DNA from: a virus
Strand: one strand, 5' to 3'
IMG/VR virus record: IMGVR_UViG_3300048580_000375
Location: 1-64,000 of that record
Length of the DNA: 64,000 nt
A program made the translations under genes and the position numbers. Numbering within the stretch: position 1 is the first letter of the stretch; each line of letters starts with the position of its first letter. The notes under the pieces are model-generated. The model saw only the letters and a list, made by a program, of their open reading frames with translations, was not told where the DNA came from and searched no databases. Below, piece by piece: positions 38,515 to 64,000 of this stretch.

Positions 38515-38785
38515 AATATTAAACAAAGAATACTTTTTAGATTTAGAAGAAGTAATTAAATGTGTCGAGCAAGGTGAAGGTGAAATAAATATTGGTAAAT
38601 TCGATGTTTTAAGAATGTGGATAGATCAATTTATTAGTTTAACCGATGTTGAAAAAAATGAAGCAACAGGACAAAGTGAAGAATTAAGTGATAGTGGTAA
38701 AATTTTATGGAATACACTATTACGTCATAACATATTAAAAGAAATAGAAGAAAATAAAGCATATTTTAAACCAAAAACAAAATGA
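38498..38785 (+). CDS. hypothetical protein
   Basis: 95 residues, helical and acidic (LDLEEVIKCVEQGEGEI). Not recognised. Overlaps the glycosyltransferase gene by 4 bases (ATGA), so expression is coupled. Confidence 0.65.
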   Translation: MKEYFKILNKEYFLDLEEVIKCVEQGEGEINIGKFDVLRMWIDQFISLTDVEKNEATGQSEELSDSGKILWNTLLRHNILKEIEENKAYFKPKTK

Positions 38786-39855
38786 TTGAAAAATTAAAAG
38801 AAAGTCTAGATAAAATAGAAAATAAAGACTTCCAAATTATGTTCCTTACACCTGATTTAAAAGGAACACCAAGAGCATCAGTAGCTGAAATCTATTATCA
38901 TGTTAAAGAATTAATTAAATTAGGTTACAACGCATCAATTCTACATGAAAATAATGAATATACGAAAGTAGGATCTTGGTTAGGTGAAGAATATGATAAT
39001 TTACCACATTCATCAATACAAGAAATTGGTGGGACATTTAAAGTCGGTCCTCAGGATTTTTTAATTATCCCTGAATTGTTCGGTAATGTCATTCAACAAA
39101 CACAAAAACTACCTTGTAAGAGAGTTATTTTAGCACAATCTTACGACTATATTTTAGATATGTTACCTCCAGGAACTAATTGGACTTCATTAGGTGTTAA
39201 TACATTTATTACCACTTCTGAAACGATTAAACAAGAAATTAATAAGTTGTTTCCAACAACCAATGGATATGTTATAAATCCCCAAATACCTTCTTATTTC
39301 AATAATAAGAATAGTCTTAAAAAACCTATCATTGCTATTATGTGTAGGGACGATAGAACTACATCAAAAATAGTTAAAACATTTTATTTAAAATACCCTT
39401 TATATTCCTTTATCACATTTAGGGATATTAAACAAATTCCAAGAGAAGAATTATCAAACGTATTAAATGATTATTTCTTATCTGTATGGGTAGACGAATA
39501 TTCTTCATTTGGAACATTCCCTGTTGAAAGTATTAGATGTGGAACCCCTGTAATTGGTAAAGTCCCAATGATTCAACCTGAATGGATTACTGAAAAAAAT
39601 GGTATTTGGTTATTTGATGAATTACAAATACCTGAAGCTATCGCTATCTTTAGTAAAAACTTTTTTGAAGATATTGAAGATTTAGAATTATTAAATGAAA
39701 TTAAAGGTATGGAAAATAAATATACCGAAGAAGAACAATCAAAACAAATTAAAGATGTATACACTAAAATATTTAACGAAAGAAAAGAAGAGTTAAAAAT
39801 AAATATTAGTAGATTATCAGAACCAAATAATTTAGAACAACCAATAGTATTATAA
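38782..39855 (+). CDS. GT-B-type glycosyltransferase
   Basis: 357 residues. The fold order fits a GT1/GT4-like enzyme: DFQIMFLTPDLKGTPRASV, central DFLIIPELFGN, and in the C-terminal half SVWVDEYSSFGTFPVESIRCGTPVI where E in the FPVESI segment is the nucleotide-sugar-binding glutamate. Acceptor unknown. Paired directly with the GT2 gene that follows. Confidence 0.7.
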   Translation: MIEKLKESLDKIENKDFQIMFLTPDLKGTPRASVAEIYYHVKELIKLGYNASILHENNEYTKVGSWLGEEYDNLPHSSIQEIGGTFKVGPQDFLIIPELFGNVIQQTQKLPCKRVILAQSYDYILDMLPPGTNWTSLGVNTFITTSETIKQEINKLFPTTNGYVINPQIPSYFNNKNSLKKPIIAIMCRDDRTTSKIVKTFYLKYPLYSFITFRDIKQIPREELSNVLNDYFLSVWVDEYSSFGTFPVESIRCGTPVIGKVPMIQPEWITEKNGIWLFDELQIPEAIAIFSKNFFEDIEDLELLNEIKGMENKYTEEEQSKQIKDVYTKIFNERKEELKINISRLSEPNNLEQPIVL

Positions 39856-39856: not shown

Positions 39857-40684
39857 ATGGAAAAAAGTAATATAAGTGTAATTATACCAATTCATACGGT
39901 TATTGAATTAGATCAATATTTACCAAAAGCATTAGAAAGTGTTGAAAAAAACACAGTCCAACCTGACGAAATTTTAATTGTTAGATGCGCTTGCCCTGAA
40001 GTAACAGAGTTTTTATCAAAATATGATTTCGGTGATATGAAAAAGAAAATCAGAATCGTTGAAACTAAAAAAACAAAAGAGTTTGCTCATATGATAAATT
40101 CGGCAGTTGAAGAAGTTAAAACAGACTATTTCTCAATCTTAGAATTTGATGATGAATACTCATCTATTTGGTTCAAAAGCGCTGTTAAATACATTAAGGC
40201 TAATTCAGATGTTGATGTATTCTTATCACACGTTATAGATGTGGATCAAAATAATAATTTCATCGGAACAACAAATGAGGTAACATGGTCATTAGGATTT
40301 GTTCAAGGGATGACACCTGAAGAAAGTTACGCTAATTTAGGTTTCTTAGATTTAGAAGCGTTAAAATCTTTCCCTAACTTTCAATTAAGCGGGGCTATTA
40401 TTAAAAAATCAACATTTGAAGATATTGGTGGAATTAAAAATAACCTTAAATTATCGTTTATTTATGAGTTCTTATTAAGAATGACATATAATGGTTATAA
40501 AGTTATGACAATCCCTAAATCAGGTTATAAACATATGAATATGAGACCTTATTCTTTATTCTGGAGATATAGAAATGATGATAGATATAAATTATCACAA
40601 GATGAAGGTAAGTTTTGGATGCAAACAGCAATGAAAGAATACTTCTTCAATTTCGATAGGGAAATTAAGTATGAGGGAAATTAA
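39857..40684 (+). CDS. GT2-family glycosyltransferase
   Basis: 275 residues. N-terminal ISVIIPIHTVIELDQYLPKAL nucleotide-binding start and the metal-binding FDDE at about 95 (SILEFDDEYSS) place it in the GT-A/GT2 class. Follows the GT-B gene by one base. Their position between replication genes and the late sigma factor suggests modification of phage DNA or virion rather than the host surface, but this is open. Confidence 0.75.
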   Translation: MEKSNISVIIPIHTVIELDQYLPKALESVEKNTVQPDEILIVRCACPEVTEFLSKYDFGDMKKKIRIVETKKTKEFAHMINSAVEEVKTDYFSILEFDDEYSSIWFKSAVKYIKANSDVDVFLSHVIDVDQNNNFIGTTNEVTWSLGFVQGMTPEESYANLGFLDLEALKSFPNFQLSGAIIKKSTFEDIGGIKNNLKLSFIYEFLLRMTYNGYKVMTIPKSGYKHMNMRPYSLFWRYRNDDRYKLSQDEGKFWMQTAMKEYFFNFDREIKYEGN

Positions 40685-42755: not shown

Positions 42756-45700
42756 TTAAACTATTTTTAAAAAGCCATTAACGTCTTTATATATAGTTCC
42801 TGTAGATAAAGATAAAATTTGTGTATAATCAGGAATATATTGAATAATTAAATTACTCGGACATAATCCGTTACTTAATGTTAAATTATTTACAAAAGTC
42901 GTACAACTACAATTTGATATAATATTAGAACCGATAATAAAACTTTGTGTATGTGATTGACAAATATTGTTATTATTTCCACCTAATATACCAGAAAAAG
43001 AACCGTTTATTAAATTATTGGATCCACCACCAATTATACTATAGCAACCTAAATTTATTTTATTATTATAACCACCACTAATTGTTGATGCAATTTGACA
43101 TGCTGTGTTACAAAAACCACCACCTATTGTTGATCTATTACCATCCGCTGTGTTACGAAAACCACCACTAATTGTTGCTGAATTATTTCTTGATAAATTA
43201 CAATAACCTCCAGATACTGTTGAATAAACTCCAGAAACTAAATTACAAAAATCTTTTCTATATGTCGACCCTGCATCTACTCCAGCAATAACTACTGATT
43301 GGTCAATACTTTTCCAAGAAATACCTGATGAGTTAGTAGTTAATACTTGACCTGTTGTTCCTGTACTTCCTGAGGCGTAAATATAACCATTAATATCCAA
43401 ATTTTGGGTAAATGTGGTGTTATTTTTATTTGTTATTATATTGGAACCTAACACAAATGAATTATTATGTGTTGATGTATTATTATATCCACCAAGTATA
43501 GACGAGTTATCACCGGTTATATGATTACCACTACCACCTAAAATATTTGAAAAATTACCGTTAATACTATTAAATCTACCACCGCTAATTGTTGCCGCCC
43601 CATAAACACTGGATGTTGTATTACAATAACCACCACTAATTGTTGAGTATTGACCTGAAATTGTATTAAATTTACCACCTCCAATAGATGACCAATGATC
43701 TAAAATCGTATTACTTTCCCCTCCATTTATTACTGAACACCCTTGATAATAATAAGTTAAACTTATATTTGTAGGTGTTTTAATTAAATTATTAAAACCT
43801 CCACCAATAAAATTAGTTGACCCTGAAATTGTGTTATATAAACCTCCACCAATTATTGAGTTTTGTCCGTATAATCTATTAGAATCCCCACCAACAATTG
43901 ATGAAAACCCACCTGTTAGTTTATTAAGTGATCCACCCCCAATAGTATTATAACAATTAAAATTATCTATACAAGAAGTATCGTTTGTTCCTTGTATTGT
44001 ATTTAAATAACCACCACCTATTGTTGAATATTCACCTGAGTTATTTATAAAATTACTAACACCGTTTATTATTGTAGAATAATCACCAAATACTACATTA
44101 TTAGTACCACCAACAACTATTTCTGATTTATCAGGTGTATTACCGGCTATATTATTTATCCCACCACCTATAAATGAATAGTTACCACATGCGGTATTAC
44201 CACTACCAGATCCAATAAATGCGTAATCACCGTAAACCATATTTGATATACCACCGGTGTTACCCCACTTAACCCCTGTTCGTGTTGAAGTCAATACTTG
44301 TCCGGTGGATCCTGAATTATTAAAACTATCAAATAAATATTTTTGTATATCTAAACAATTAACATATGTTGTGTTTGTTCTATCTGAACTTAAACCATTA
44401 CCTATTATAAATGAATTGTCGTGTGTTAATAAATTTGTATTACCACCTAAAATACCACTACAATTTGAAGTTGATTTATTATATACCCCACCTAAAATCA
44501 CCGAATCTCTACCTGATACGGTATTATACCAACCACCACCAATAACACCACCTGGTTTTAATATTGTATTGTTGTGACCACCACCAATATATGAGTTAAA
44601 ATCTGATGCGATATTAAGGGAACCACCACCTATTGTTGATAAACAACCCGATATTGTGTTTTGACAACCACCACCTATTGTTGAATAACACCCTAAAATT
44701 TTATTTATATACCCGCCATTAATGACACCATAATCACCCGATATTGTATTATAATATCCACTACCAATATATGAAAATGGTTTTGTTATTATATTAAACC
44801 AACCACCGGATATTGTTGAACAATTTGCACTTATCGTATTTTTACAACCACCACCTATTGTTGATACGTTAGATAATATTGTATTTGATTCACCTCCTGA
44901 TATAACACCACCACGACCATTTGAAGTATTTGTTTGACCACCACTTATAGTTGAATATATTCCGGATGCGATATTATTTTGTTGTATTCTATTTGTTGTT
45001 CCAACCACATTTAAATATTCTTGTATAATACCACTACCGGTTAAAGTAATTATTGTTTGATTACTCCCACTAATATTTACCCATTTAACACCTGTTGGTG
45101 TTGATGAAAGTATTTGTCCTGTCGCTCCTTGACAATTAAAACTATCGAATAAATGGGTTTGGATGTCTAAACAATTAACATAAGTTGTATTTGTTTTATC
45201 AGAAGTTATGTTAGAACCTAAAATAAAAGTATTTGTTTTATTGGTGTAATTATTTTCCCCACCCAATATTCCAGAATTTGAACTAAGTATGGTATTACAA
45301 TTACCACCACCAATTAAAGATTGATTATTTAAAACTAAATTATTAACACCACCATTAATTACTGAATCATCCCCACTTATTGAGTTATTAGAACCACCAC
45401 CAATAAATGAATAATTACCCGATGAAGTATTTTGAATCCCGCCGGTAATTGTGGAATAACAACCTAAATTATAGTTAATAAATCCACCTAATACTGATGA
45501 ATATACCCCTGAAACTAAATTATCGTTATCAACTCTAACACTCGACCCTAATGTTGTACCTGAACTATATAAGTTAGCTGATATTATGATATTAGTATTG
45601 TTATTTGATGTTGACGCACTAACCCATTTTATACCTGTTGAAGTCGTAGATAAAACGTATCCGGTTAAACCTGTTGAATTGTTAACATCATATATGTGGT

Positions 45701-48383
45701 TTTTTACATCTAAATTATTAACAAATGTAGTATTTGATTTATCAGAAGTAATATTAGAACCAACTATAAATGAATTTGTATGGTTTAAAATTTTATTATT
45801 TTCCCCACCTATTATTGATGAGCTATCACCACTAATACTATTATTTATACCACCACCTATTACTGAAAAAGAACCTAAATTAGATATGTCATTTAAATAT
45901 CCGCCACCAATAACTGAACAACACCCATTTGATGTATTATATTTACCACCGGAAATAACACTATCTTTACCGTTAGATGTGTTATGAATACCACCACCTA
46001 TTACTGAACCTGTGTTTAATGTTGTATTTCTTTCACCGCCACCAATAAATGATTTGTAATTACTAACGGTATTATTCCAACCACCACCTATTACACCCCA
46101 TGAAGCAATTTGTATCCTGTTACAAAGACCACCAGCTATAGATCCATAATTAGCTGAATTTGTATTACATAATCCACCACCAATAAATGATTGACTACCT
46201 GATGAGCTATTTAAAAAACCACCACCAACAAATGAATGATTACCCGAAGCGTTATTACTATAACCACCAACAACAACTGAAAAATCACCAAACGCTGAAT
46301 TATTTTGACCACCACCAACAAATTCACCTAGATTAGGGGTACAGCCGGCAATATTATTTAAACCACCGACAACAACTGAATAGTTACCACAAGCGGTATT
46401 ACCACTACCAGATCCAATAAATCCGTAATTACCGATTAAATTATTATTATTACCAACTCCAACGATATTTGAAATCGATGTCCATGTAATACCACTATTT
46501 GTCGAAGTTAAAACGTAATTGGTGTTACCGGTACTCCCATCAAAATCTTTTATTGATTTAGCTGTTAGTTGATTTAATTTTAAATTACTGTAATTTATTA
46601 TGTTTATTGTTGATGACGTATAAACACTATTAGTATAACCTAATTTGAATTCTTCATCGACTTCACTCCAAATAAAAGCAGTATCTTCAGTTATACCTCT
46701 ATCAATTAAAAAACCGGCATCTTTAGTTGGTATTGTTGTACCTGATGATAAAACAAGTATTGGGTTTGATATGATTAAAGATGATGTATTAATAGTTGTT
46801 GCCGTTCCTGAATATAATAAATTACCATTTATAATTAAATTACCATAAATAGTACCCCCACTTATACTTAATTTTTTATTTAGAAGTTGTGATGATGACC
46901 CAAGAGGGGTGTCGATATTTACCCAATTAATTAAGCCATTTGATTTATTAATACTTAAAATTTGATTTTCAGAGCCGGGACTATTATTACCATCATATAA
47001 GTAACCTCGAATATTAGTGTTATTAATAAAAACAGTATCATTTCTATTCGCATCACCTGCGTTACCTAAAATAACGACATTACTACAACCACTATCACTA
47101 TTATTATAACCTAAAATATATGAATTAACCCCTGTTGAAGTGTTGTTACAACCTAAAACAATTGAACCCTCACCAGATACTACATTATTATAACCACCAA
47201 CCACAGAGTAGGAACCTAATGCTGAGTTATTACAACCACCAATAACGGAAGATCCGCAATTGGATGTGGTATTACAATTACCACCACCAATTATTGAGTA
47301 ATTACCGTTATTGTAATTATTCGATCCTGCGAAAATACCTGAGTAATTACCATCGGTGATTGTATTATTGGTTCCACCACCAATTATTGAACAAACACCT
47401 TTATTTTGATCGTCAACATTACCACCTATAAAATTATATTCACCACCGCCAATTAATGATATATTGCCAAAAACAGTGTTATAATTACCACCACCTATAA
47501 ATGATCCTTTATTTATTCCTAATGTATTATATTTACCACCCGAAATGACTTGAAATGAGTCAACACCCCTACCAAGTATCGTATTAAACGCTCCTCCCCC
47601 AATTGATGAATAAGAACCGGATAATGTGTTATTTAATCCACCATTAATTAATGACAAACAACTTTCACCTTCCGATATTGAATTTTGCTGACCTGAGCCA
47701 ATAAAACCCCAATTACCATCTAATAAATTAGATTGACCACCTACAAGAACATTATAGTTATCAATAGTTATAGTGTTATTATCCCCACCACCTATAAATG
47801 AAGAACCTTGAATACCTAATAATCCAGGTCCGCCACCACCTATAATTACGTTACTATTACCGCCTGAATTACCCCAACAAAAACCATCTGATGTAGCGAC
47901 TATAAATTGACCTGTTAAACCTGGTGATCCTACATTATCGTATATATAATCTTTAATGTTTATAGACTCTACAAATGAAGTATTTGTTGTTGTAGCGGTT
48001 AAATTACTACCTAAAATAACGGAATTAGTTTTATCCGTGTAGTTATTAACGCCACCAATAATAGTAGAACAATTACCAATCGCCGAATTATTAGACCCAT
48101 TTCTTACGGTTGAATAACTACCAGTTCCTTGTGTTATGGTATTACCTGTATAATTTGAGAAAAAATTAATATCTATTTTTTCATCTAATATGTTTTTAGT
48201 ATCAGATGTATATTGATAAAATGTATCATTTTGAACAACCGGTATAGAATCAACAAAATCATTTATTATGATTTTATTTGATGTATTACTTGATATACTA
48301 TATAGTAATAATAAATCTTCAGACGGTTTTACTTGCCCGCTGTTTATACCTGTTAAATCTTTTAATATTCTTCCTTGTGCCAT
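42756..48383 (-). CDS. giant modular repeat fibre/adhesin
   Basis: 1875 residues. The N-terminal ~90 residues look like an attachment part. The body is built of short repeats with the pattern N(T/N)-xSGxxS-xIxGG, like the beta-roll of YadA-type adhesin heads. These blocks are separated by seven or eight copies of a ~55-residue spacer containing FI(L/V)GSNI, NTT(F/Y)VN, a D(I/V) strand, G-TGQ(V/I)L and GVKW. Cysteines recur in CN and GCYS positions. The C-terminus (GTIYKDVNGFLKIV) is a typical phage fibre end. Probably a trimeric receptor-binding fibre. CTATTTATA lies three bases before the ATG. Confidence 0.8.
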   Translation of the reverse strand: MAQGRILKDLTGINSGQVKPSEDLLLLYSISSNTSNKIIINDFVDSIPVVQNDTFYQYTSDTKNILDEKIDINFFSNYTGNTITQGTGSYSTVRNGSNNSAIGNCSTIIGGVNNYTDKTNSVILGSNLTATTTNTSFVESINIKDYIYDNVGSPGLTGQFIVATSDGFCWGNSGGNSNVIIGGGGPGLLGIQGSSFIGGGDNNTITIDNYNVLVGGQSNLLDGNWGFIGSGQQNSISEGESCLSLINGGLNNTLSGSYSSIGGGAFNTILGRGVDSFQVISGGKYNTLGINKGSFIGGGNYNTVFGNISLIGGGEYNFIGGNVDDQNKGVCSIIGGGTNNTITDGNYSGIFAGSNNYNNGNYSIIGGGNCNTTSNCGSSVIGGCNNSALGSYSVVGGYNNVVSGEGSIVLGCNNTSTGVNSYILGYNNSDSGCSNVVILGNAGDANRNDTVFINNTNIRGYLYDGNNSPGSENQILSINKSNGLINWVNIDTPLGSSSQLLNKKLSISGGTIYGNLIINGNLLYSGTATTINTSSLIISNPILVLSSGTTIPTKDAGFLIDRGITEDTAFIWSEVDEEFKLGYTNSVYTSSTINIINYSNLKLNQLTAKSIKDFDGSTGNTNYVLTSTNSGITWTSISNIVGVGNNNNLIGNYGFIGSGSGNTACGNYSVVVGGLNNIAGCTPNLGEFVGGGQNNSAFGDFSVVVGGYSNNASGNHSFVGGGFLNSSSGSQSFIGGGLCNTNSANYGSIAGGLCNRIQIASWGVIGGGWNNTVSNYKSFIGGGERNTTLNTGSVIGGGIHNTSNGKDSVISGGKYNTSNGCCSVIGGGYLNDISNLGSFSVIGGGINNSISGDSSSIIGGENNKILNHTNSFIVGSNITSDKSNTTFVNNLDVKNHIYDVNNSTGLTGYVLSTTSTGIKWVSASTSNNNTNIIISANLYSSGTTLGSSVRVDNDNLVSGVYSSVLGGFINYNLGCYSTITGGIQNTSSGNYSFIGGGSNNSISGDDSVINGGVNNLVLNNQSLIGGGNCNTILSSNSGILGGENNYTNKTNTFILGSNITSDKTNTTYVNCLDIQTHLFDSFNCQGATGQILSSTPTGVKWVNISGSNQTIITLTGSGIIQEYLNVVGTTNRIQQNNIASGIYSTISGGQTNTSNGRGGVISGGESNTILSNVSTIGGGCKNTISANCSTISGGWFNIITKPFSYIGSGYYNTISGDYGVINGGYINKILGCYSTIGGGCQNTISGCLSTIGGGSLNIASDFNSYIGGGHNNTILKPGGVIGGGWYNTVSGRDSVILGGVYNKSTSNCSGILGGNTNLLTHDNSFIIGNGLSSDRTNTTYVNCLDIQKYLFDSFNNSGSTGQVLTSTRTGVKWGNTGGISNMVYGDYAFIGSGSGNTACGNYSFIGGGINNIAGNTPDKSEIVVGGTNNVVFGDYSTIINGVSNFINNSGEYSTIGGGYLNTIQGTNDTSCIDNFNCYNTIGGGSLNKLTGGFSSIVGGDSNRLYGQNSIIGGGLYNTISGSTNFIGGGFNNLIKTPTNISLTYYYQGCSVINGGESNTILDHWSSIGGGKFNTISGQYSTISGGYCNTTSSVYGAATISGGRFNSINGNFSNILGGSGNHITGDNSSILGGYNNTSTHNNSFVLGSNIITNKNNTTFTQNLDINGYIYASGSTGTTGQVLTTNSSGISWKSIDQSVVIAGVDAGSTYRKDFCNLVSGVYSTVSGGYCNLSRNNSATISGGFRNTADGNRSTIGGGFCNTACQIASTISGGYNNKINLGCYSIIGGGSNNLINGSFSGILGGNNNNICQSHTQSFIIGSNIISNCSCTTFVNNLTLSNGLCPSNLIIQYIPDYTQILSLSTGTIYKDVNGFLKIV

Positions 48384-55099: not shown

Positions 55100-55103
55100 T
55101 AAT

Positions 55104-55637
55104 ATGGAAAATATATTTTTAAAATGTGAATGTCATTCTCACGGACTTGAAGTCGAAGTTGATAGAAACTCTGAAAACCCAAATAATTCAGAGTTTATGT
55201 TTAGTATTTGGGAGTATGGTAAAAAAACCAAACCATCATTTAAACAAAGATGGGATTATTTTTGGACTGGTAATAATGATATGATTAACGATCACGTTAT
55301 TATGGATCTAAAAAAAGCGTCTGAATTATCAAAATATTTGGTATCTAATATTGATAAAATTAATGTGGATATTAAAAAACATAACTCTTCTAATGGTTTA
55401 ATTAGGGATTTAATTAAAAAATCTGAAGAAAATTTAGAGAAGATTTTAAAAAGAAAACCTAAAAAAGTTGTACCGACAAAACAACAAGTGGAAAAGGATA
55501 TTATGGTTAAATCGGAAAAAATTAAAACCGGTAATGATAATAAAATTGAAAAAATTGGTGAATTAATTATTCCTACAAATGGTGCTGGTTTTCAAGGGGG
55601 TGAATCAGGTGATGGTTTAAGTGGATTTAGGGGTTAG
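55104..55637 (+). CDS. hypothetical phage protein with lysine-rich tail
   Basis: 177 residues from the ATG at 55104, chosen because AATAAT precedes it as in neighbouring genes; ATG at 55092 is equally possible. Starts MENIFLKCECHSHGLEVEV, then WDYFWTGNNDMINDHV, then a charged helix-rich basic region (ILKRKPKKVVPTKQQ) and a glycine-rich end (GGESGDGLSGFRG). Not recognised. Confidence 0.6.
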   Translation: MENIFLKCECHSHGLEVEVDRNSENPNNSEFMFSIWEYGKKTKPSFKQRWDYFWTGNNDMINDHVIMDLKKASELSKYLVSNIDKINVDIKKHNSSNGLIRDLIKKSEENLEKILKRKPKKVVPTKQQVEKDIMVKSEKIKTGNDNKIEKIGELIIPTNGAGFQGGESGDGLSGFRG

Positions 55638-55674
55638 AAATTAAACCTTAATCTTTATTTTTAGTAGAATATTT

Positions 55675-55714
55675 ACGATACTTAGTCTATGATTAAAAAT
55701 GGTCTAAGTATCGT
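55675..55714 (+). promoter_or_regulatory. hairpin holding the start codon of the glycan operon
   Basis: Perfect 11-base inverted repeat ACGATACTTAG (55675-55685) / CTAAGTATCGT (55704-55714). The 18-base loop contains the ATG at 55689-55691. No T run, so not a terminator. Confidence 0.65.
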
Positions 55715-57248
55715 TTGTTCTATGCGAGAACACGATAAAGAGTTTGAAGAACACGTTAAAAAAACTATCGGATTAAAGGATTATGAGTTATTGTTTTACA
55801 TAAATCCAGGAACACATTCACTTACAGAATTATATAATAAAGGATTAAATGAATCCAAGAACAAATACGTTCTTTTCTGTCATAATGATATTAAATACCT
55901 TAAATCGGGTTGGGGTAAAAGATACATTGAACAACTTGAAAATAAAGATTATGGTATTATAGGACACGCTGGAACCACAAAATTAACTGAAAGTGGAAGA
56001 TGGTGGGATGATATGAATTTGATGGTAGGTCAAGTATGGCATCAACACAATGATGAACAATCAGGTAAAACTATGAAATGGGAATCAAAATATTCGGGTA
56101 ATTTTGGTTATGAGGTAATTAATACTATTAATTTGGATGGCTTAGCTTTCTGTGTTAATAAAGAAAAAATTAAAGAAAGATTTGATGAAAACATAAAAGG
56201 GTTTCACTTTTATGATTTAGATTTTACATTGGCGAATCATATCGCTGGTGTTGAAATTGGTGTTATTTTTGATAACCCTATTTTACATAAATCAATTGGG
56301 ATGACAGACGAACAATGGGAAACTACGAGACAACAATTTGTTGATAAGTGGATTAATGTCGGTATCCCATTAGAAATTAAACCAATTAACGTATTTCATG
56401 ATAAACACGTAAATAAACCCTTACCTAAAGAACCTAAATTAGCAATAATTATCCCAAGTAAAAACAACTACGATTTATTAGAAAGGTGTGTTAAATCTAT
56501 TCAAGAAACGAAGTTTTCTAATTATAAAATTTATATTGCTGACACTGGTTCATTAAAAGTTACGGTTGATAAAATCAAAGAAAATTTATTAAATGATAAA
56601 GTGGTGTTAAACCAGTATGGTTACTATAACTTTAGTAAGATTAATAACGATATGGTAAATAATTTTATCGATAAGGATAGTGAGTTAGTATTATTTTGTA
56701 ACGATGATGTCTATATTAAAGAAGGTGATCCAATTACAAGAATGACTACGATTTACGTTAATAATAAACATGATATTGGGACGATAGGTTTAAGATTACA
56801 TTTCGGTGAAAGAAGTGGTGATAAGGTAAATAAAGTTCAACATGGCGGTGTAATTGCTTTTACTAATGGACAAGAAATAAGAATAACACATCAAGGGTTA
56901 GGTAGTTATTGGGGTTATGAACCAAGTGTGAAAAGAGATGTGTTTGGTAATACGTTTGCTTTTGCTATGACACCTATGAATGTTTGGAAGAAAGTCGGTG
57001 GGTTAAATGAAATATTTGAAGAATGTTTTGAGGATGTGGAATTTAATTTAAAATGTATATTAAATGGAAAAACCAATTACTTTATTGGTGATGAATACGC
57101 AATTCACGATGAATCATCATCAAGAAATAAATCACAAGAAAAATTACAAAAAGAATCTTTGGATTACCAAAAGATTGTAAAAATAATAAGTGGTTATATG
57201 TGGAATGAAAGACTACAAAAATTAATAAAATTTATAAACAAACAATAA
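55689..57248 (+). CDS. tandem GT-A glycosyltransferase
   Basis: 519 residues with two GT-A-like units. Unit 1 (about 1-240): LSIVCSMREHDKEFEEHV and VLFCHNDIKYLKSGW (DxD-like HND). Unit 2 (about 250-519): KLAIIIPSKNNYDLLERCV, LVLFCNDDVYI, and GNTFAFAMTPMNVWKKVGG with FEDVEFNLK, the GT2 hallmark order. It is the first gene of a compact operon of sugar-transfer genes and its start is held in a hairpin. Confidence 0.8.
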   Translation: MIKNGLSIVCSMREHDKEFEEHVKKTIGLKDYELLFYINPGTHSLTELYNKGLNESKNKYVLFCHNDIKYLKSGWGKRYIEQLENKDYGIIGHAGTTKLTESGRWWDDMNLMVGQVWHQHNDEQSGKTMKWESKYSGNFGYEVINTINLDGLAFCVNKEKIKERFDENIKGFHFYDLDFTLANHIAGVEIGVIFDNPILHKSIGMTDEQWETTRQQFVDKWINVGIPLEIKPINVFHDKHVNKPLPKEPKLAIIIPSKNNYDLLERCVKSIQETKFSNYKIYIADTGSLKVTVDKIKENLLNDKVVLNQYGYYNFSKINNDMVNNFIDKDSELVLFCNDDVYIKEGDPITRMTTIYVNNKHDIGTIGLRLHFGERSGDKVNKVQHGGVIAFTNGQEIRITHQGLGSYWGYEPSVKRDVFGNTFAFAMTPMNVWKKVGGLNEIFEECFEDVEFNLKCILNGKTNYFIGDEYAIHDESSSRNKSQEKLQKESLDYQKIVKIISGYMWNERLQKLIKFINKQ

Positions 57249-58024
57249 TGACTAAATTAGGTATAGCATATAATATTTTTGATGACTCAATAGAGTTGTT
57301 AGAAAAATCAATTTTATCTGTTAGAAATGTCGCTGATTACATCACAGTAATATATCAAGACATTTCTAATATGGGTAATGAATCTGAAGTAAATTTAAAA
57401 GAATTACTAACCGAATATAAAAATAAAGGTTTAATAGATTCTTTTTATTTATATAAACCACAATTAAACGCACCTATTCCACATATTAATGAAATAAATA
57501 AAAGGAATATGGGTTTATATGTTTGTCAAGGTGAAGGTTGTACTCATTTTATGTCAATGGATTCTGATGAATTCTATAAAGAAGATGAGTTAAGGAAAGT
57601 ATTAAACGTAATGGTTGAAGGTGATTATGATTCATCTGCTTGTCAATTACAAACTTATTGGAAGAGCGGTAAATGGGTTTTAAATCCACCTGAAGAATAT
57701 TATGTTAGTTTAATATATAAAATTAGATCTGGTGTGGATTTTGTATTGGGACACGTATTTCCTGTTTTAGTTGATCCAACAAGAAGAATGAATCCTGGTA
57801 ATTGTAAAATATTTACAAGGGATGAAATAGAAATGCATCACGCATCATATGTTAGAAATGACATAGCTAAAAAATTATTTAATAGTTCATCTATAAGTAG
57901 TTTTGGTGATATTATTGAAGATTTAATTAATTACTTTAATAATTGGAAAGAAGGTGATAAAGCATTTATGCCTGATAGAAATAAATATGATCTTAAAAAA
58001 GTGGAAAATTTGTTTAATATATGA
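57248..58024 (+). CDS. glycosyltransferase (GT-A, DSDEF motif)
   Basis: 258 residues. LGIAYNIFDDSIELLEKSIL start and the MSMDSDEFYKEDEL segment (metal-binding DSD at about 101) fit small GT2-like enzymes. H-H at EMHHASYV may be catalytic-side residues. Overlaps its upstream neighbour by one base. Confidence 0.7.
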   Translation: MTKLGIAYNIFDDSIELLEKSILSVRNVADYITVIYQDISNMGNESEVNLKELLTEYKNKGLIDSFYLYKPQLNAPIPHINEINKRNMGLYVCQGEGCTHFMSMDSDEFYKEDELRKVLNVMVEGDYDSSACQLQTYWKSGKWVLNPPEEYYVSLIYKIRSGVDFVLGHVFPVLVDPTRRMNPGNCKIFTRDEIEMHHASYVRNDIAKKLFNSSSISSFGDIIEDLINYFNNWKEGDKAFMPDRNKYDLKKVENLFNI

Positions 58025-58755
58025 AAATAGCTGTTTGTTTACACCTTTTCTATACCGATATGTGGGAAGAAATAACACATTATTTGGATAATATTAATCA
58101 TCCATATAAATTATATGTTAGTTTAGTAGATAGTTATTATGATGAAAGTATTATGGATAAAATTCACTCGTATAAACCAGATATGGCTACAATTGTTGTG
58201 GTTGAAAACAAAGGTGTTGATATTGGTGGATTTTTAAATGTCTATCCGTTAGTTGATGAAGATACTGATTTAATATTAAAAATACACGGTAAGAAAAGTA
58301 TTGGATTACCTAATAAACCATCAGATATGGTTAAAGTTTATGGTATGGAAAGTGCAATACAAAAAGGTAGAGAATGGTTTGAAAGAAATATGAATGGTAT
58401 TCTAAAAAACTCAGATTTTGTAGATAGTATAATTGATAGATTTAAAACCGATGAAACTTGTGGTTTAATTGGACATAATTTAGAGACTTACGTTGGACCT
58501 AACGACTTTTTAGTAAAAGAATTAATTAAAATGTTTGGGTTAAATCCTAATGTATATGGATCACCATTTATAGATGGGACTATGTTTTGGGTTAGAAACG
58601 ATTTATTTAAAAAATATTTAACCGAAGATGGTGTTAGAAATATATTAAAAATGATACCAAAAGGTTATCAAAACGAACCATCAATTAACCATTCACTTGA
58701 AAGGATTTTTGGTTATATTATAAAAAATGAAAATAAAGAAGTTATTGTTTTATGA
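58021..58755 (+). CDS. RgpF-like (rhamnan synthesis F) protein
   Basis: 244 residues. AVCLHLFYTDMWEEI, YKLYVSLVDS, ENKGVDIGGFL and LKIHGKKS, then PFIDGTMFWVRNDLF are the signature order of the RgpF family found in polysaccharide clusters. Acts in assembly of rhamnose-type polysaccharides in bacteria; its exact reaction here is not certain. Four-base overlaps on both sides. Confidence 0.82.
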   Translation: MKIAVCLHLFYTDMWEEITHYLDNINHPYKLYVSLVDSYYDESIMDKIHSYKPDMATIVVVENKGVDIGGFLNVYPLVDEDTDLILKIHGKKSIGLPNKPSDMVKVYGMESAIQKGREWFERNMNGILKNSDFVDSIIDRFKTDETCGLIGHNLETYVGPNDFLVKELIKMFGLNPNVYGSPFIDGTMFWVRNDLFKKYLTEDGVRNILKMIPKGYQNEPSINHSLERIFGYIIKNENKEVIVL

Positions 58756-59417
58756 TATTAAATGAATATTTTGATAAAGCATTTTGTATAAATCTTGACA
58801 GAAGAAATGATAGGTGGGAAGAAGTTCAACCAATCTTTATAAAGGAAAATATTGAAATTGAAAGATTTAGTGCTTGTGATGGTAATAAAGAGTTTAATTT
58901 ACCGATAGTTGAAGGTGGTCCGGCATCAAATGCTGAGTTGGGTGGGACTAAATCACATATGGATGTTATTATAAGAGCGAAAGAATTGGGATTAAAGAAT
59001 GTTTTAGTTTTTGAAGATGATGTTGATTTAATACCAAATATAAATGAAGAGTTTTCTAAAGTTTTAGAACAGATACCTGATGATTGGGATATGATTTATT
59101 TTGGTGGTAATCATGTTGGTGGTTTATTACAAATTAGTCCTAATATATGTAGAGCTGGTAGAACTTATGCTTTACAAATGTATGCGGTAAATGAAAAGTT
59201 TTATGATTTGGCTATAAAATATTATTCAGATAAAATTAAATGGGTTTTAAGTGGTAGACAACCATTAAAACCATCGGTAGCTGCGGATTATTTCATTGCG
59301 GATTTACACCAAATAATAAATTGTTATGTAATTAAACCACACTTCTCTTGGCAAAGAAAAAGTTATTCTGATTTAGCGGAGCAAGTGGTTGATTATAATT
59401 TTTTAAAAAATAAATAA
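58752..59417 (+). CDS. GT25-family glycosyltransferase
   Basis: 221 residues. AFCINLDRRNDRWEEV, FSACDGN, GTKSHMDVI and VLVFEDDVDLIPN (EDD motif at about 85) are the GT25 (LPS galactosyltransferase-type) signature. Operon spacing is tight (4-base overlap, then 3-base gap). Confidence 0.88.
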   Translation: MILNEYFDKAFCINLDRRNDRWEEVQPIFIKENIEIERFSACDGNKEFNLPIVEGGPASNAELGGTKSHMDVIIRAKELGLKNVLVFEDDVDLIPNINEEFSKVLEQIPDDWDMIYFGGNHVGGLLQISPNICRAGRTYALQMYAVNEKFYDLAIKYYSDKIKWVLSGRQPLKPSVAADYFIADLHQIINCYVIKPHFSWQRKSYSDLAEQVVDYNFLKNK

Positions 59418-59420
59418 AAT

Positions 59421-60170
59421 ATGAAAATAGATGAATTAGCTTTAAAACACGGCACTGATAAATCCAGTTTGGATCACTATTACACCCAATTTTATCAAAA
59501 ATACTTTGATAAGTATGTTAGTAACCCTAAAAAAATATTAGAGTTAGGTATTTACACAACAACAAAAAGTACTGATTTAGAAACATCGGGTGCATCATTA
59601 AAAACATGGTCTGAATATTACCCTGAATCAGATATCTATGGTTTAGATTTAAGCGACTACTCGATATTAGATAATACTTATAAAAATATACACACCTTAC
59701 CTTGTAATACTGAAATTAGAAAAAATGATGATGTATATAAATTACAAAATCCGTGGCTAAGAGAAATATATACAAACCCTAAACACCAATTAATTGGTGG
59801 TGGTGTAGGTTTAGAAGATATTGAAAAAAAATTCGGTAGTGATTTTGATATTATAATTGATGATGGTCCACATACAATGTCAGGACAACAAATATTTTTA
59901 GGGTATATGTTTAAGCATTTAAAATCGGGTGGAATATTTGTTATTGAAGATTTGTGTACTTCAGATATTAATAAATGGGGGTCGACATATAATAGTTATC
60001 CATTTACCGAAAAAAATACTTTATGGGTGATTAATTATTATATTAAACATAAAAAAATAGTCACAGATTTTATGTTAGAAAATGAGATTAAGTATTTGGA
60101 AGATAACATTTCTGAAATGTATTTAGAAACCGCTAATAATTCTGAAATTGTTTTTATAGTTAAAAAATGA
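59421..60170 (+). CDS. SAM-dependent methyltransferase of sugar/natural-product type
   Basis: 249 residues. LALKHGTDKSS, KILELGIYTTTKSTDL (motif I GIY-T), DIYGLDLSDYS and FDIIIDDGPHTMSGQQ with YMFKHLKSGGIFVIEDL match the class I methyltransferases that modify sugars in glycan and macrolide pathways. Likely caps or decorates the glycan built by the neighbours. Confidence 0.78.
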   Translation: MKIDELALKHGTDKSSLDHYYTQFYQKYFDKYVSNPKKILELGIYTTTKSTDLETSGASLKTWSEYYPESDIYGLDLSDYSILDNTYKNIHTLPCNTEIRKNDDVYKLQNPWLREIYTNPKHQLIGGGVGLEDIEKKFGSDFDIIIDDGPHTMSGQQIFLGYMFKHLKSGGIFVIEDLCTSDINKWGSTYNSYPFTEKNTLWVINYYIKHKKIVTDFMLENEIKYLEDNISEMYLETANNSEIVFIVKK

Positions 60171-60940
60171 TAACGTGTGAATTAATGGGTGGTTTAGGAA
60201 ATCAATTATTCCAAATCGCAACAACAACAGCACTTGCTTTACGAAATAACGATAACGCTTGTTTCGATATTGATGGTCATAAAATAGGGTTACAAGGAAG
60301 AGATGCTATAAATTATAAGGAAAATATTTTTAGGAATTTATTAAACCAAAAAATAGAAACAAATAATGTTTTCGAACAAAATGGGTTTCATTATGAAAAT
60401 ATACCTTATTCTAAGAATCTTAAATTAAGTGGTTATTTCCAGAGTGAAAAATATTTCATTGATTATAGGGATGAAATATTAGAATTATTAAGTCCTGGTG
60501 AAAAGATAGAAAAATATATTGAACAAAAATTTGGGGAAATATTGAAGAAAAAAACTTGTTCACTCCATGTTAGACATGGTGATTATTTACAATTATCTAA
60601 TTATCACCCACCATGTTCGGTTAAATATTATACAGAGGCAATTAAAATGTTTGATGATGATACTTTATTTATTATTTTTTCTGACGATATTTCTTGGTGT
60701 AAGTCTGTATTTAGAGGAGATAATTTTTTCTTTATAGAAAATGAAGAGGATTATATTGACTTATATATTATGAGCAAATGTTTAGATAATATAATGGCGA
60801 ATAGCTCATTTAGTTGGTGGGGGAGTTGGTTAAATAAAAACGAAAATAAACGTGTAATTGTTCCGAGTAAATGGTTCGGTAAAGGATATTTTGATTGGAA
60901 TATAAATGATGTTTATACAAATAAAATGATAAAATTATGA
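60167..60940 (+). CDS. GT11 alpha-1,2-fucosyltransferase-like protein
   Basis: 257 residues, near the family norm of 280-300. GGLGNQLFQIA at the N-terminus, LSGYFQSEKYF, SLHVRHGDYL with the substrate-binding HxRxGDY, and NSSFSWWGSWLN are diagnostic of GT11. It would transfer fucose (or a related deoxy-sugar) from GDP-sugar. Confidence 0.9.
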   Translation: MITCELMGGLGNQLFQIATTTALALRNNDNACFDIDGHKIGLQGRDAINYKENIFRNLLNQKIETNNVFEQNGFHYENIPYSKNLKLSGYFQSEKYFIDYRDEILELLSPGEKIEKYIEQKFGEILKKKTCSLHVRHGDYLQLSNYHPPCSVKYYTEAIKMFDDDTLFIIFSDDISWCKSVFRGDNFFFIENEEDYIDLYIMSKCLDNIMANSSFSWWGSWLNKNENKRVIVPSKWFGKGYFDWNINDVYTNKMIKL

Positions 60941-61629
60941 TGAATTTTAGTTTTGGAATATGTAAGGGTATTAATTCACCCTTTTTGAAAGAAATAATTT
61001 ATTCTATACGACAACAAAATATAGATAATTATGAAATAATAATTGTAGGGGAAAAACATACAGAATTTGGTGATGATATTATTAATATAGATTTCGATGA
61101 AAGTATTAAACCAGGTTGGATAACTAAAAAGAAAAATTTAATAACTAAGAATGCTAAGTATGAAAATATAGTTTATCTTCACGATTATGTTTATTTTAAA
61201 CATGACTGGTATAAAGGTCAAATCCTTAAAGGGTGTGATATTAAAATTAGAATGGATAAGATAAAAAACAATAATGGTGATAGATTTAGAGATTGGTGTA
61301 TTTGGCCTAATAATGATAATGTTATTGATAATATTATAGGTAGAAGTATAATGATACCTTACGATATGACACATTTATCAAAATATATGTATATTAATGG
61401 AACTTATTGGATTGCTAACAAAAAAATAATGACAGAATTCCCGTTAAATGAAGATTTAGTTTGGGGTGAAAGTGAGGATGTTGAATGGTCAAAAAGAGTT
61501 AGGGAAAAATATAGTTTTGAAATGAATGACTTTTCCGAAGTAAGATTATTAAAACAACATTCAAACCACGATTTTAGTGAATGTAATAATGATATTATAA
61601 AAATATTAAAAGAATATGAAAAAAATTAA
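60937..61629 (+). CDS. glycosyltransferase (GT-A-like)
   Basis: 230 residues. NFSFGICKGINSPFLKEII start, NYEIIIVGE, NIVYLHDYVYFK (HDY at the DxD position) and VWGESEDVEWSKRV near the C-terminus are GT2-like. Overlaps neighbours by 4 and 14 bases. Confidence 0.7.
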   Translation: MMNFSFGICKGINSPFLKEIIYSIRQQNIDNYEIIIVGEKHTEFGDDIINIDFDESIKPGWITKKKNLITKNAKYENIVYLHDYVYFKHDWYKGQILKGCDIKIRMDKIKNNNGDRFRDWCIWPNNDNVIDNIIGRSIMIPYDMTHLSKYMYINGTYWIANKKIMTEFPLNEDLVWGESEDVEWSKRVREKYSFEMNDFSEVRLLKQHSNHDFSECNNDIIKILKEYEKN

Positions 61630-62425
61630 AATATTTGACGATATATTTTCCCATAATCCTTATAGTTGTTTAAATTGTGTGTCGGATTATATTATTTGGG
61701 ACGTAAACCCTGAAAAAATAAATGATGGGGATATTATTTTTTTTACTGACATTTCTTTAGAAAAGGTGTTAGAATATAAAGGTAGAAACGTAAAAAAGTA
61801 TGCTTGGTTATTAGAATCTCCGGCAATTATTAATCAAGATAAAATATTAGAATTAGAAAATGAATTTGATAATATATTCACATTTAGAAATGACTTATTA
61901 AAACTATCTAATAAATATAAATTATTATTACATTGGTGTTGTTGGATAAAAAATCAAGATAAACAGATTTATAGTAAAACAAAATCATTATCCATAATAG
62001 CCTCTGGGAAGAGGCAAACGGAAGGACATATTTTAAGACATAGTATTATTTCTTTATTCGGTAATAAAATGGATATTTTTGGTCGGGGGTATAATTTTAT
62101 TGAAGATAAATTAGAAGGATTAAAAGACTATAAATTTCATATTGTCGTTGAAAATATAAAAGAAGATTATTATTTTAGTGAAAAACTATTAGATTGTTTT
62201 GCTACTGGAACAATACCGATATATTGGGGGTGTCCTTCTATCGGTGATTTTTTCAATGAAAAAGGTATTTTAATTTTTAATAATATGGATGGTTTATATA
62301 ATATTTTAAAAAAAATAAATGATGAAAAATATGAAGAACTTTTACCTTACGCTATTGAAAATTTTAAAATATTACAAAAATATAAAACCCCAGAAGATTA
62401 TTTAATAAATTATAATATACTATGA
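61616..62425 (+). CDS. GT10-like (alpha-1,3-fucosyltransferase family) protein
   Basis: 269 residues. YKFHIVVENIKEDYYFSEKL followed by LDCFATGTIPIYWGCPSIGDFF is the nucleotide-sugar-binding signature of GT10. The N-terminal acceptor half is divergent (YAWLLESPAIIN). Together with the GT11 gene it points to a deoxy-sugar-rich glycan. Confidence 0.82.
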   Translation: MKKIKIFDDIFSHNPYSCLNCVSDYIIWDVNPEKINDGDIIFFTDISLEKVLEYKGRNVKKYAWLLESPAIINQDKILELENEFDNIFTFRNDLLKLSNKYKLLLHWCCWIKNQDKQIYSKTKSLSIIASGKRQTEGHILRHSIISLFGNKMDIFGRGYNFIEDKLEGLKDYKFHIVVENIKEDYYFSEKLLDCFATGTIPIYWGCPSIGDFFNEKGILIFNNMDGLYNILKKINDEKYEELLPYAIENFKILQKYKTPEDYLINYNIL

Positions 62426-63777
62426 TTAAACTAATACTTTTTGATTTGGATGGTGTTCTTGTAGATGCCAAAAATATACATTACGAAACCTTAAATAATG
62501 CCCTACCCTTAGAATATAGGATAGGTTGGGAAGAGCATTTAAGTATTTATGATGGTTTAAAAACCATTCAAAAACTAGAGTTATTAACACATAATAAAGG
62601 TTTATCTAAAGATAAATATAACGATATATGGGTGAGTAAACAAAAATTTACACAAGAAAAATTAGAAAATTTAGAAGTATCTTCAGTATTAAAGAATACT
62701 ATAAAACAATTATCTTTAAATGGGTATAAATTAGGGGTAGCTTCAAATAGCATACGTAAAACAGTAAATTTAGTATTATCTAAATTAGATATAATACAAT
62801 ATTTTGACACTATATTATCTAATGAAGATATTTTTAATAGTAAACCACACCCTGAAATTTATTGGAAGTCAATGTCTATGTTAAATATATTACCAGAAGA
62901 TACTTTAATTATTGAAGATTCCCCATATGGTTTGTTAGCCGCTAACAGAAGTAATGCTAATATTTATAGAGTTAAAAATCCTAAAGATATAAATTACGAT
63001 AATATTATAAATGAAATTAAAAAAATAGAAAATAGAAATATGATGCCAAAATGGAAAGATAAAAAATTAAATGTTTTAATACCTATGGCCGGTGCTGGGT
63101 CAAGATTTGCTGATGCTGGATATACTTTTCCTAAACCATTAATAGAAGTAAATGGGAAACCAATGATACAAGTGGTTGTTGAAAATCTTAATATTGATGC
63201 AAATTACATATATGTTGTTCAAAAAGAACATAGAAAAAAATATAATTTAGATACTTTATTAAATTTAATAACACCGGATTGTAAAATAGTTGAGGTAGAA
63301 GGTATTACTGAAGGTGCTGCTTGTACGGCATTATTGGCTAAAGAATTTATAGACAATGATAAACCTCTATTTTTTGCCAATTCGGATCAATTCGTTGAAT
63401 GGGATTCTACTGAATTTATGTATAAAATGAATGAATCGAATGTTGATGGTGGTATAATAATATTTAAGTCTACACACCCTAAATGGTCATTTGCTAGGTT
63501 AAATGATGATGGACTTATAAGTGAAGTCGCTGAAAAAAATCCAATTTCCGATAATGCGACGGTAGGTTTTTATTATTGGAAATATGGTAAAGATTTTGTG
63601 AAATACGCAGAACAAATGATTATTAATAACATTAGAGTTAATAATGAATTTTATGTTTGTCCAGTTTTCAATGAAGCTATAAACGATGGTAAGAAAATAT
63701 TACCATTTAATGCAAAAAATATGTATGGTTTAGGGACACCTGAAGATTTGAATAATTTTTTATTAAATCATAAATAA
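62422..63777 (+). CDS. HAD phosphatase fused to sugar-phosphate nucleotidyltransferase
   Basis: 451 residues. Domain 1 (1-205) is a beta-phosphoglucomutase-like HAD: FDLDGVLVD at 7-15, ASNS at 107-110, KPHPEIY and IIEDSPYG. Domain 2 (215-451) is a nucleotidyltransferase: PMAGAGSRFADAGYTFPKPL at 221-240, FANSDQF for metal binding, and CPVFNEAI. The fusion would trim or mutate a sugar phosphate and activate it to a nucleotide sugar, supplying donors for the transferases upstream. Confidence 0.87.
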   Translation: MIKLILFDLDGVLVDAKNIHYETLNNALPLEYRIGWEEHLSIYDGLKTIQKLELLTHNKGLSKDKYNDIWVSKQKFTQEKLENLEVSSVLKNTIKQLSLNGYKLGVASNSIRKTVNLVLSKLDIIQYFDTILSNEDIFNSKPHPEIYWKSMSMLNILPEDTLIIEDSPYGLLAANRSNANIYRVKNPKDINYDNIINEIKKIENRNMMPKWKDKKLNVLIPMAGAGSRFADAGYTFPKPLIEVNGKPMIQVVVENLNIDANYIYVVQKEHRKKYNLDTLLNLITPDCKIVEVEGITEGAACTALLAKEFIDNDKPLFFANSDQFVEWDSTEFMYKMNESNVDGGIIIFKSTHPKWSFARLNDDGLISEVAEKNPISDNATVGFYYWKYGKDFVKYAEQMIINNIRVNNEFYVCPVFNEAINDGKKILPFNAKNMYGLGTPEDLNNFLLNHK

Positions 63778-63780
63778 TTT

Positions 63781-64000
63781 GTGAAAGTTGCGTTATTAAT
63801 ATCTGGACATATGAGGTATTTTAAAGAAACTATACCATCATTAAAAAGATCTATTTTAGATGTTTTAAATCCTGACATATATATTCATACATGGGATGAA
63901 GGTGATAGAAGTATGTGGAATAATACTTTAGGTGGTGAAATAAATAACAAATATTTCGATAATTTAGGTATAAATATTAAAAAATTTGTTATAGATAAAT
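63781..64000 (+). CDS. glycan-operon protein, truncated by the window edge
   Basis: Starts with GTG at 63781, three bases after the previous stop, and stays open to the edge (73 codons). KVALLISGHMRYFKETIPSL and PDIYIHTWDEGD resemble a family of surface-glycan glycosyltransferase-like proteins seen in phage and bacterial clusters. Only the N-terminus is visible. Confidence 0.65.
   Translation, partial: MKVALLISGHMRYFKETIPSLKRSILDVLNPDIYIHTWDEGDRSMWNNTLGGEINNKYFDNLGINIKKFVIDK

What the first reader, a model, noticed from the sequence alone, without database searches (positions are those of the whole stretch)
55689..64000. Nine-gene glycan synthesis operon in a phage, including GT10 and GT11 enzymes
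Seen: tandem GT-A, GT2-like, RgpF-like, GT25, methyltransferase, GT11, GT-A, GT10, and a HAD-nucleotidyltransferase fusion, with overlaps of a few bases, continuing past the edge. Two more transferases lie at 38.8-40.7 kb. Known: Bacteroidota have fucosylated surface glycans. Inference: the phage may build a complete oligosaccharide on its virion, on its DNA, or on the host surface to exclude other phages.
Basis: partly seen in the sequence, partly recalled or inferred. Interest (0 to 1): 0.7.

Follow-up and report, generated by a model that had tools for sequence, protein, structure and literature searches.

The report
Swappable sugar-chain building locus in phage
A large tailed phage carries a complete 14-gene set for building a sugar chain inside the infected cell, at a fixed place in its genome where a sister phage holds a largely different set, so these phages probably decorate themselves (or their host) with changeable sugar coats.

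Summary
Nine tightly packed ORFs at 55689-63777 are glycan enzymes, and the locus runs five genes past the window edge and then stops: 14 genes, record 55689-67141. It is phage DNA. Sister contig G001 (core proteins mostly 85-97% identical) has the same two flanks and the same first three transferases (93-95%). Beyond them it has a different 23-gene set in total, which includes GDP-fucose-type donor enzymes (a GDP-mannose dehydratase and a likely GDP-fucose synthase), UDP-galactopyranose mutase and two DegT aminotransferases. So this is a fixed glycan locus with a conserved head and an exchangeable tail. None of the 14 proteins has a membrane segment, and no exporter, priming or polymerase family was found in 80 related viral loci. 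A bacterial cluster with the same sugar-activation module does have an ABC exporter. The HAD-nucleotidyltransferase fusion has 291 relatives in viral contigs (the best ones about 70% identical) but only three close matches in 84,980 genomes. It travels with a 142-aa glycerophosphodiesterase-like protein. Similar clusters are published in T4-like cyanophages and read there as host cell-wall modification. I favour cytoplasmic glycosylation of virion proteins over host-surface change; DNA glycosylation is unlikely. The target is not shown.

The parts
55689..57248 (+). P1: head gene, two-domain glycosyltransferase (Glyco_tranf_2_5 + GT2), candidate first-acting enzyme
   Evidence: Pfam; 95% identical in sister G001 and 83% in G002; a 38-40% relative heads the cluster in L070, L071 and L079-L081, and G006 has a related 551-aa head gene at the same site
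57248..58024 (+). P2: GT2-like transferase (weak match)
   Evidence: PF00535 E 3.7e-4, below cut-off; 93% in G001
58021..58755 (+). P3: RgpF-like transferase
   Evidence: PF05045 3.8e-27; 94% in G001, last gene shared with the sister
58752..59417 (+). P4: GT25 transferase, first gene of the exchanged part
   Evidence: PF01755 1.2e-9; absent from G001
59421..60170 (+). P5: SAM methyltransferase (sugar O-methylation inferred)
   Evidence: phrog_21658 8.5e-18; 43% relative in G001 at another position
60167..60940 (+). P6: GT11 (alpha-1,2-fucosyltransferase family)
   Evidence: PF01531 1.3e-24; motifs HVRHGDY and SSFSWW; 48% in G001; relatives in about 100 annotated phages, mostly cyanophages
60937..61629 (+). 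P7: GT-A-fold transferase without a Pfam family
   Evidence: AlphaFold pLDDT 89.7; Foldseek 6p61 E 1.4e-8 and GalNAc-transferases; conserved WGxxEDxxWS
61616..62425 (+). P8: GT10 (fucosyltransferase family)
   Evidence: PF00852 8.9e-6, above cut-off; conserved EN...Y(F)xEK motif
62422..63777 (+). P9: bifunctional HAD phosphatase/mutase-like + sugar-phosphate nucleotidyltransferase; makes an activated donor (substrate unknown)
   Evidence: HAD_2 1.4e-32 and NTP_transferase 3.8e-10; 291 viral relatives, the best about 70% identical; mean column identity 81% over 30 sequences
63781..64000 (+). P10: start of a 257-aa 'SGHMR' family protein, likely transferase (full gene 63781-64554 of the record; GTG start)
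   Evidence: family present in 36 of 87 fusion-bearing loci and in bacterial cluster L143. Genes P11-P14 lie beyond the window at record 64579-65340, 65399-66151, 66156-66716 and 66713-67141 (mini-GDPD)
38782..39855 (+). GT4-like transferase of the core genome
   Evidence: PF00534 0.013, weak; conserved with its neighbour in G001, G002, G003, G006, G008 at 34-94%
39857..40684 (+). GT2 transferase of the core genome
   Evidence: PF00535 5.9e-11; conserved in the same five contigs
42756..48383 (-). 1875-aa repetitive tail-fibre-like protein: candidate acceptor and the other locus that varies between sister phages
   Evidence: 36% S+T+N; 62% identical over only 47% in G001, while its neighbours are 88-94%. 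Fibre role inferred from repeats and position

Best explanation
A complete, phage-owned glycan locus. Shown: 14 co-directional, mostly overlapping genes at one fixed genomic site in a T4-like myophage lineage, with a conserved head of three transferases and an exchangeable distal part; all products are soluble by hydropathy; no exporter, lipid-primer or polymerase gene. Inferred: during infection P9 (with P14) makes a nucleotide-activated sugar or sugar-like donor; host or phage supplies GDP-fucose and other donors; P1-P3 lay down a constant base on an acceptor in the cytoplasm; the distal transferases (GT25, GT11, GT-A, GT10 and others) and the methyltransferases add a fucosylated, methylated outer part that differs between phages. 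The most likely acceptor is a virion protein (tail fibre or capsid), as in chloroviruses, giving a variable coat that changes recognition of the particle. The acceptor is not shown.
For: (1) Phage-embedded and complete: G001 shares both flanks. Left, 51782-58757 at about 90-92% nt; right, the last 54 bases of the record at 92.6% inside the convergent gene next to DNA polymerase. (2) Conserved head, swapped tail: P1-P3 at 93-95% aa, then no nt match except GT11 at 65%. (3) No hydrophobic segment in any of the 14 proteins or in the G001 allele. Only 22 of 1451 plus-strand ORFs in 80 related loci have two or more segments, and none of the 8 of these tested is an exporter by Pfam. Positive control: the bacterial cluster with the same module has ABC2_membrane, an ABC ATPase and Acyl_transf_3. 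(4) Donor capacity in the sister allele: GMD 1.4e-120, a likely GDP-fucose synthase, UGM, two DegT, AsnB-like. (5) The tail-fibre gene is another strongly varying locus. (6) Precedent: most PBCV-1 transferases are predicted soluble and cytoplasmic and some were implicated in major capsid protein glycosylation (PMC9614988).
Against: Transferases that act on undecaprenyl-linked sugars at the inner face of the membrane are often soluble too, so a phage could borrow the host's primer, flippase and polymerase. RgpF, GT25 and GT11 families are typical of LPS and capsule clusters. The published reading of the closest cultured clusters (cyanophage S-SCSM1) is host cell-wall modification (PMC9602691). 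No acceptor site, no protein oligosaccharyltransferase and no glycoproteomics were available. The link to the fibre rests on parallel variation in one pair of sisters.
Confidence: 0.48

Rival explanations
1. Host-surface remodelling: the phage enzymes redirect the host's lipid-linked glycan (O-antigen, capsule or periplasmic protein glycan), using the host's own primer, flippase and polymerase, to block superinfection or alter recognition.
For: RgpF, GT25, GT11 and GT10 families; the bacterial GDPD-HAD-NTase module sits in surface-polysaccharide-type clusters; authors of S-SCSM1 read their similar cluster this way (PMC9602691).
Against: No membrane primer, flippase, ABC exporter, polymerase or acyltransferase among the tested multi-segment ORFs of 80 related viral loci or by hydropathy in five cyanophage clusters. 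The phage looks lytic (T4-like replication genes; no integrase noted, not searched for specifically), leaving little time to rebuild the surface.
Confidence: 0.35
2. DNA hypermodification: the transferases glycosylate modified bases in phage DNA against restriction.
For: Phages do this with diverse transferases (Pyle et al. 2024, cited in PMC12619734). Two DNA methyltransferase genes are present.
Against: No thymidylate-synthase/hydroxymethylase homologue in the window record, G001 or the 211-kb G008, and no Tet_JBP match in any contig (contigs may be incomplete, and the Tet search had no positive control). The methyltransferases are N6/N4 type, not C5. No DNA-glucosyltransferase family among the cluster proteins. 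Fourteen genes with GT10/GT11 are far more than DNA needs.
Confidence: 0.07
3. Assembly artefact: a bacterial polysaccharide cluster joined to a phage contig.
For: Gene families resemble bacterial clusters.
Against: Independent contigs G001 and G002 read colinearly through the left junction into P1-P2, and G001 shares the right flank as well. The fusion enzyme is far commoner in viral contigs than in genomes.
Confidence: 0.02
4. The products act on small molecules or on host proteins to counter a defence system rather than making a structural glycan.
For: Some viral transferases modify small molecules; the P9/P14 product is unknown.
Against: The number and diversity of transferases and the sugar-donor enzymes of the sister allele point to an oligosaccharide.
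Confidence: 0.05

Closest known systems
T4-like cyanophage 'cell wall/LPS' gene clusters (S-SCSM1, S-SM2, S-CAM9, S-PRM1, B23; Kyanoviridae)
   Same: Long co-directional operon of transferases, methyltransferases and donor enzymes in a T4-like phage with no exporter seen by hydropathy. S-SCSM1 has GMD, GDP-fucose synthase, GT11, NodZ, asparagine synthase and methyltransferases, like the G001 allele. Several others carry the HAD-NTase fusion or its NTase part, and the mini-GDPD.
   Different: The window phage belongs to another lineage: its 787-aa structural-region protein and its core GT4 protein match no annotated phage. The fusion is 57% identical to the cyanophage form. No photosynthesis genes were noted.
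Chlorovirus PBCV-1 and mimivirus virion glycan machinery
   Same: Virus-encoded, mostly soluble transferases and (in the sister allele) donor enzymes that assemble an oligosaccharide in the cytoplasm (PMC9614988).
   Different: Eukaryotic viruses with unrelated genomes; there the glycan on the capsid is demonstrated, here it is not.
Bacterial GDPD-HAD-NTase module in surface polysaccharide clusters (genomes G314, G101)
   Same: Same three activities in a row; HAD 44-45% and NTase 40-48% identical; GDPD-like about 210 aa beside them.
   Different: Separate genes in bacteria; HAD and NTase fused and the GDPD shrunk to 142 aa in the phage. The G314 cluster includes an ABC exporter and an acyltransferase.
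Mycobacteriophage capsid and tail-tube glycosylation
   Same: Phage glycans on the particle, reported as shielding it (Freeman et al. 2023 as summarised in PMC12619734).
   Different: The machinery was not compared here; the paper itself is not held.

Membership tests
GT11 fucosyltransferase family | Profile match above cut-off; HxRRGDY-type donor motif | tested here: met
   PF01531 87.4 bits vs cut-off 23.9; motif present as HVRHGDY, second Arg replaced by His. Linkage specificity not testable.
GT10 fucosyltransferase family | Profile match above cut-off; EN..Y.TEK-type donor motif | tested here: met
   PF00852 25.9 bits vs cut-off 23.9; ENIKEDYYFSEK, E and K invariant in 15 relatives. Only the C-terminal domain scored.
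Exported surface polysaccharide (Wzx/Wzy or ABC) biosynthesis cluster | Membrane primer, flippase/ABC permease, polymerase or ligase | tested here: not met
   None among the 14 genes or the 23-gene G001 allele; none by Pfam among 8 tested multi-segment ORFs of 80 related loci; the bacterial control was positive
T4-like phage glycan operon as in cyanophages | Transferase-rich operon embedded in a T4-like genome | tested here: met
   T4-type neck, baseplate hub, UvsX, SSB, helicase and primase; flanked by DNA polymerase in the sister
T4-like phage glycan operon as in cyanophages | Own GDP-fucose donor enzymes | tested here: inconclusive
   Absent from the window allele, present in the sister allele; the rest of the window phage genome is not assembled
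Virus-encoded virion glycosylation (PBCV-1 type) | Soluble cytoplasmic transferases | tested here: met
   No hydrophobic 19-mer in any of the 14 proteins
Virus-encoded virion glycosylation (PBCV-1 type) | Glycan on a structural protein | not testable with these tools
   Needs glycoproteomics
Phage DNA glycosylation | Pathway to a hydroxylated base (TS-like hydroxymethylase or TET) | tested here: not met
   PF00303 and PF12851 absent from G000, G001 and G008; contigs may be incomplete and the PF12851 search had no positive control
GDPD (glycerophosphodiester phosphodiesterase) | HR...ExD...HD active-site motif on a TIM-barrel fold | tested here: inconclusive
   Motif invariant in 53 sequences; profile hits PDB GDPD 7e0v at E 0.0025; model pLDDT 96.9, but best GDPD fold match 1v8e only TMq 0.44, E 0.03

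The most novel reading that the evidence does not exclude
T4-like phages of aquatic bacteria carry a syntenic, cassette-swapped 'glycotype' locus that builds an oligosaccharide on the virion entirely in the cytoplasm. It is centred on a largely virus-restricted HAD-nucleotidyltransferase plus mini-GDPD pair making an undescribed activated donor: a bacteriophage counterpart of chlorovirus virion glycosylation, with exchangeable glycan types.
Probability: 0.35. Interest if true: 0.82.

Novelty: new variant of a known kind. Interest (0 to 1): 0.58.

Why it matters
Glycan gene clusters in T4-like cyanophages have been filed as host cell-wall genes without a test. The comparison here shows a fixed locus with exchangeable content, no export genes, and a largely virus-restricted donor-making enzyme pair found in hundreds of viral contigs. 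If the glycan sits on the virion, phage particles carry self-made, switchable sugar coats, which bears on host range, defence and immune recognition. Cultured cyanophages with the same enzyme pair make this directly testable by mass spectrometry of purified particles.

Tried and rejected
Chimeric contig: rejected. DNA glycosylation: searched PF00303 and PF12851; not found in the window lineage. A GT60 (cytoplasmic Skp1-type) plus prolyl-hydroxylase route as the general mechanism: GT60 occurs in 11 of 87 loci but not in the window or G001, and a 2OG-oxygenase in only one of 16 contigs, so not general. Regulatory RNA (S-SCSM1 has an annotated wcaG RNA): Rfam finds only tRNAs in the window, its extension and 40 kb of G001. 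Annotated relatives of the phage itself: none for the 787-aa protein or the core GT4 protein. Identifying the NTase substrate: profile hits (4evw; 6-deoxy-heptose pathway protein 5xhw/6jq8) and phosphoheptose isomerase neighbours in S-SM2 hint at a heptose-type donor, but this is only a lead. Literature searches for phage virion glycan clusters and for the GDPD-HAD-NTase set found nothing closer.
Full report
OBSERVATION. The nine ORFs exist as described and their families are confirmed. P7, which no Pfam family recognises, has a GT-A fold by AlphaFold and Foldseek. The window is bases 1-64000 of a 67,303-base IMG/VR virus record. Beyond the edge are five more ORFs: P10 257 aa (SGHMR family), P11 253 aa, P12 250 aa, P13 186 aa (looks methyltransferase-like by eye, no Pfam match) and P14 142 aa. 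The operon then stops. Gene spacings are -1, -4, -4, 3, -4, -4, -14, -4, 3, 24, 58, 4, -4, a layout no chance set of ORFs would give.

IT IS PHAGE DNA AND IT IS COMPLETE. A scan with the neck protein found sister contigs. G001 (109 kb) matches most core proteins at 85-97%, and G002 mostly at 79-94%. G001 is colinear up to and into the operon (nt identity about 90-92% to base 58757), then diverges. The last 54 bases of the window's record match G001 again at 92.6%, inside a convergent gene that lies next to a DNA polymerase gene. Both flanks are therefore fixed. The window allele is 14 genes and 11.5 kb; the G001 allele, counted, is 23 genes and 20 kb.

CONSERVED HEAD, EXCHANGED TAIL. P1-P3 are 93-95% identical in G001. 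Downstream, G001 has other genes: GT7C-like, GT2, two GT11, NodZ-like and GT10 transferases, GDP-mannose dehydratase (1.4e-120), a likely GDP-fucose synthase (Epimerase family, 45% to its relatives), two further SDR enzymes, two DegT aminotransferases, an asparagine-synthase-like protein, UDP-galactopyranose mutase and methyltransferases. More distant phages (L070, L071, L079-L081) have a P1-like head gene just after the same upstream neighbour family, and G006 has a related 551-aa gene in that position. L071 and L079 carry relatives of GT25, GT10, P7 and the fusion in that order. So the window allele is a mosaic: head shared with its sister, tail shared with distant phages.

NO EXPORT MACHINERY. 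None of the 14 proteins has a hydrophobic segment. In 80 related loci only 22 of 1451 plus-strand ORFs have two or more, and none of the eight tested matches an exporter, primer or polymerase family. The contrast is a bacterial chromosome (G314) in which the same donor module sits with an ABC-2 permease, an ABC ATPase and a membrane acyltransferase. This lowers, but does not exclude, a host-surface role, because host membrane enzymes could be borrowed.

A LARGELY VIRUS-RESTRICTED ENZYME PAIR. The HAD-nucleotidyltransferase fusion had 291 relatives among viral contigs; the 80 kept are 66-73% identical. The same patterns gave three close matches in 84,980 genomes, all on MAG contigs. Among 395 genomes drawn from one of those MAGs' phylum, only that MAG itself scores as a true fusion or a true mini-GDPD. 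P14 is a 142-aa protein with invariant HRG, ExD, GHD and HxK residues. It occurs in 71 of 87 fusion-bearing loci, and each of the 16 annotated cyanophage records that carry it also appears in the search with the fusion or its NTase part. Its model is confident (pLDDT 96.9) but only loosely resembles solved GDPD structures (1v8e, TMq 0.44). In two bacterial genomes a roughly 210-aa GDPD-like protein, a separate HAD and a separate NTase stand in a row. The phage pair is thus best read as a fused, shortened version of a bacterial donor-making module. Its product is unknown; a heptose-type sugar is a lead only.

MECHANISM AND TARGET. Established by sequence: a co-directional gene set, products soluble by hydropathy, fixed locus, swapped distal part. 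Inferred from families: donor activation by P9/P14, a constant base by P1-P3, then fucosylation by P6/P8, methylation, and further sugars. Also inferred: the acceptor is a virion protein. Supporting points are the missing export genes, the parallel variation of the fibre gene at 42756-48383 against 88-94% identical neighbours, a transferase pair at 38.8-40.7 kb kept in all five relatives, and the chlorovirus precedent (PMC9614988). DNA as target is unlikely (the methyltransferases are N6/N4 type).

KNOWN OR NEW. T4-like cyanophages carry comparable clusters; S-SCSM1's is published as cell-wall synthesis and modification (PMC9602691), and GT11 relatives occur in about 100 annotated phages. I therefore call this a new variant of a known kind. 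New relative to what I could find are the head/tail exchange at a fixed locus in a lineage outside cultured phages, the absence of export genes tested against a positive control, and the largely virus-restricted enzyme pair with its bacterial ancestor-like module. The host is not known; absence of Shine-Dalgarno sites (1 of 51 genes, 2.1 expected) fits Bacteroidota but does not prove it.

CAVEATS. Contigs are metagenomic and incomplete. Hydropathy is a simple 19-residue test. The pattern-based scans find close relatives only, and IMG/VR membership is itself a prediction. Gene counts use mechanical ORFs. Nothing here shows expression, and no acceptor has been identified.

Noticed in passing
L143:6850-8848 (G314) and L144:5890-7896 (G101): Bacterial three-gene run GDPD-like, HAD, NTase in polysaccharide-type clusters, apparent unfused counterpart of the phage fusion plus mini-GDPD; product unknown. 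In G314 a cupin (56% to a phage cupin in L070) and an SGHxR-family protein follow.
   Followed up: partly
L072:6699-7955; G012:C1:72699-73571; G019:C1:100710-101486: GT60-type (PF11397, Skp1 polypeptide GlcNAc-transferase family) proteins two or three genes before the fusion in 11 phage loci; the eukaryotic relatives glycosylate a cytoplasmic protein, a hint for protein acceptors.
   Followed up: partly
42756-48383: 1875-aa protein of IGGGxNNxxSG-type repeats (resembles trimeric adhesin head repeats), 36% S+T+N, strongly divergent between sister phages.
   Followed up: partly
38782-40684: GT4-like + GT2 pair conserved (34-94%) in all five relatives, mostly with the gene at 37987 before it and 41074-41787 after it, even when the surroundings are rearranged; the GT4 protein has no match in annotated phages.
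   Followed up: partly
28567-30353: Two N6/N4-type DNA methyltransferase genes within the structural-gene region, 93-96% conserved in G001.
   Followed up: no
522-7305: 17 tRNA genes on the minus strand, two of them Met-CAT.
   Followed up: no
60566-60586: GT11 donor motif reads HVRHGDY, while the G001 relative reads HVRRGDY; may affect activity or donor choice.
   Followed up: no
L017:235-3873: 1212-aa ORF with 17 hydrophobic segments and no Pfam match, upstream of a fusion-bearing cluster.
   Followed up: no
window, genome-wide: Practically no Shine-Dalgarno motifs (1 of 51 genes), compared with 6-9 of 24-28 in three of the four cyanophage loci tested.
   Followed up: partly
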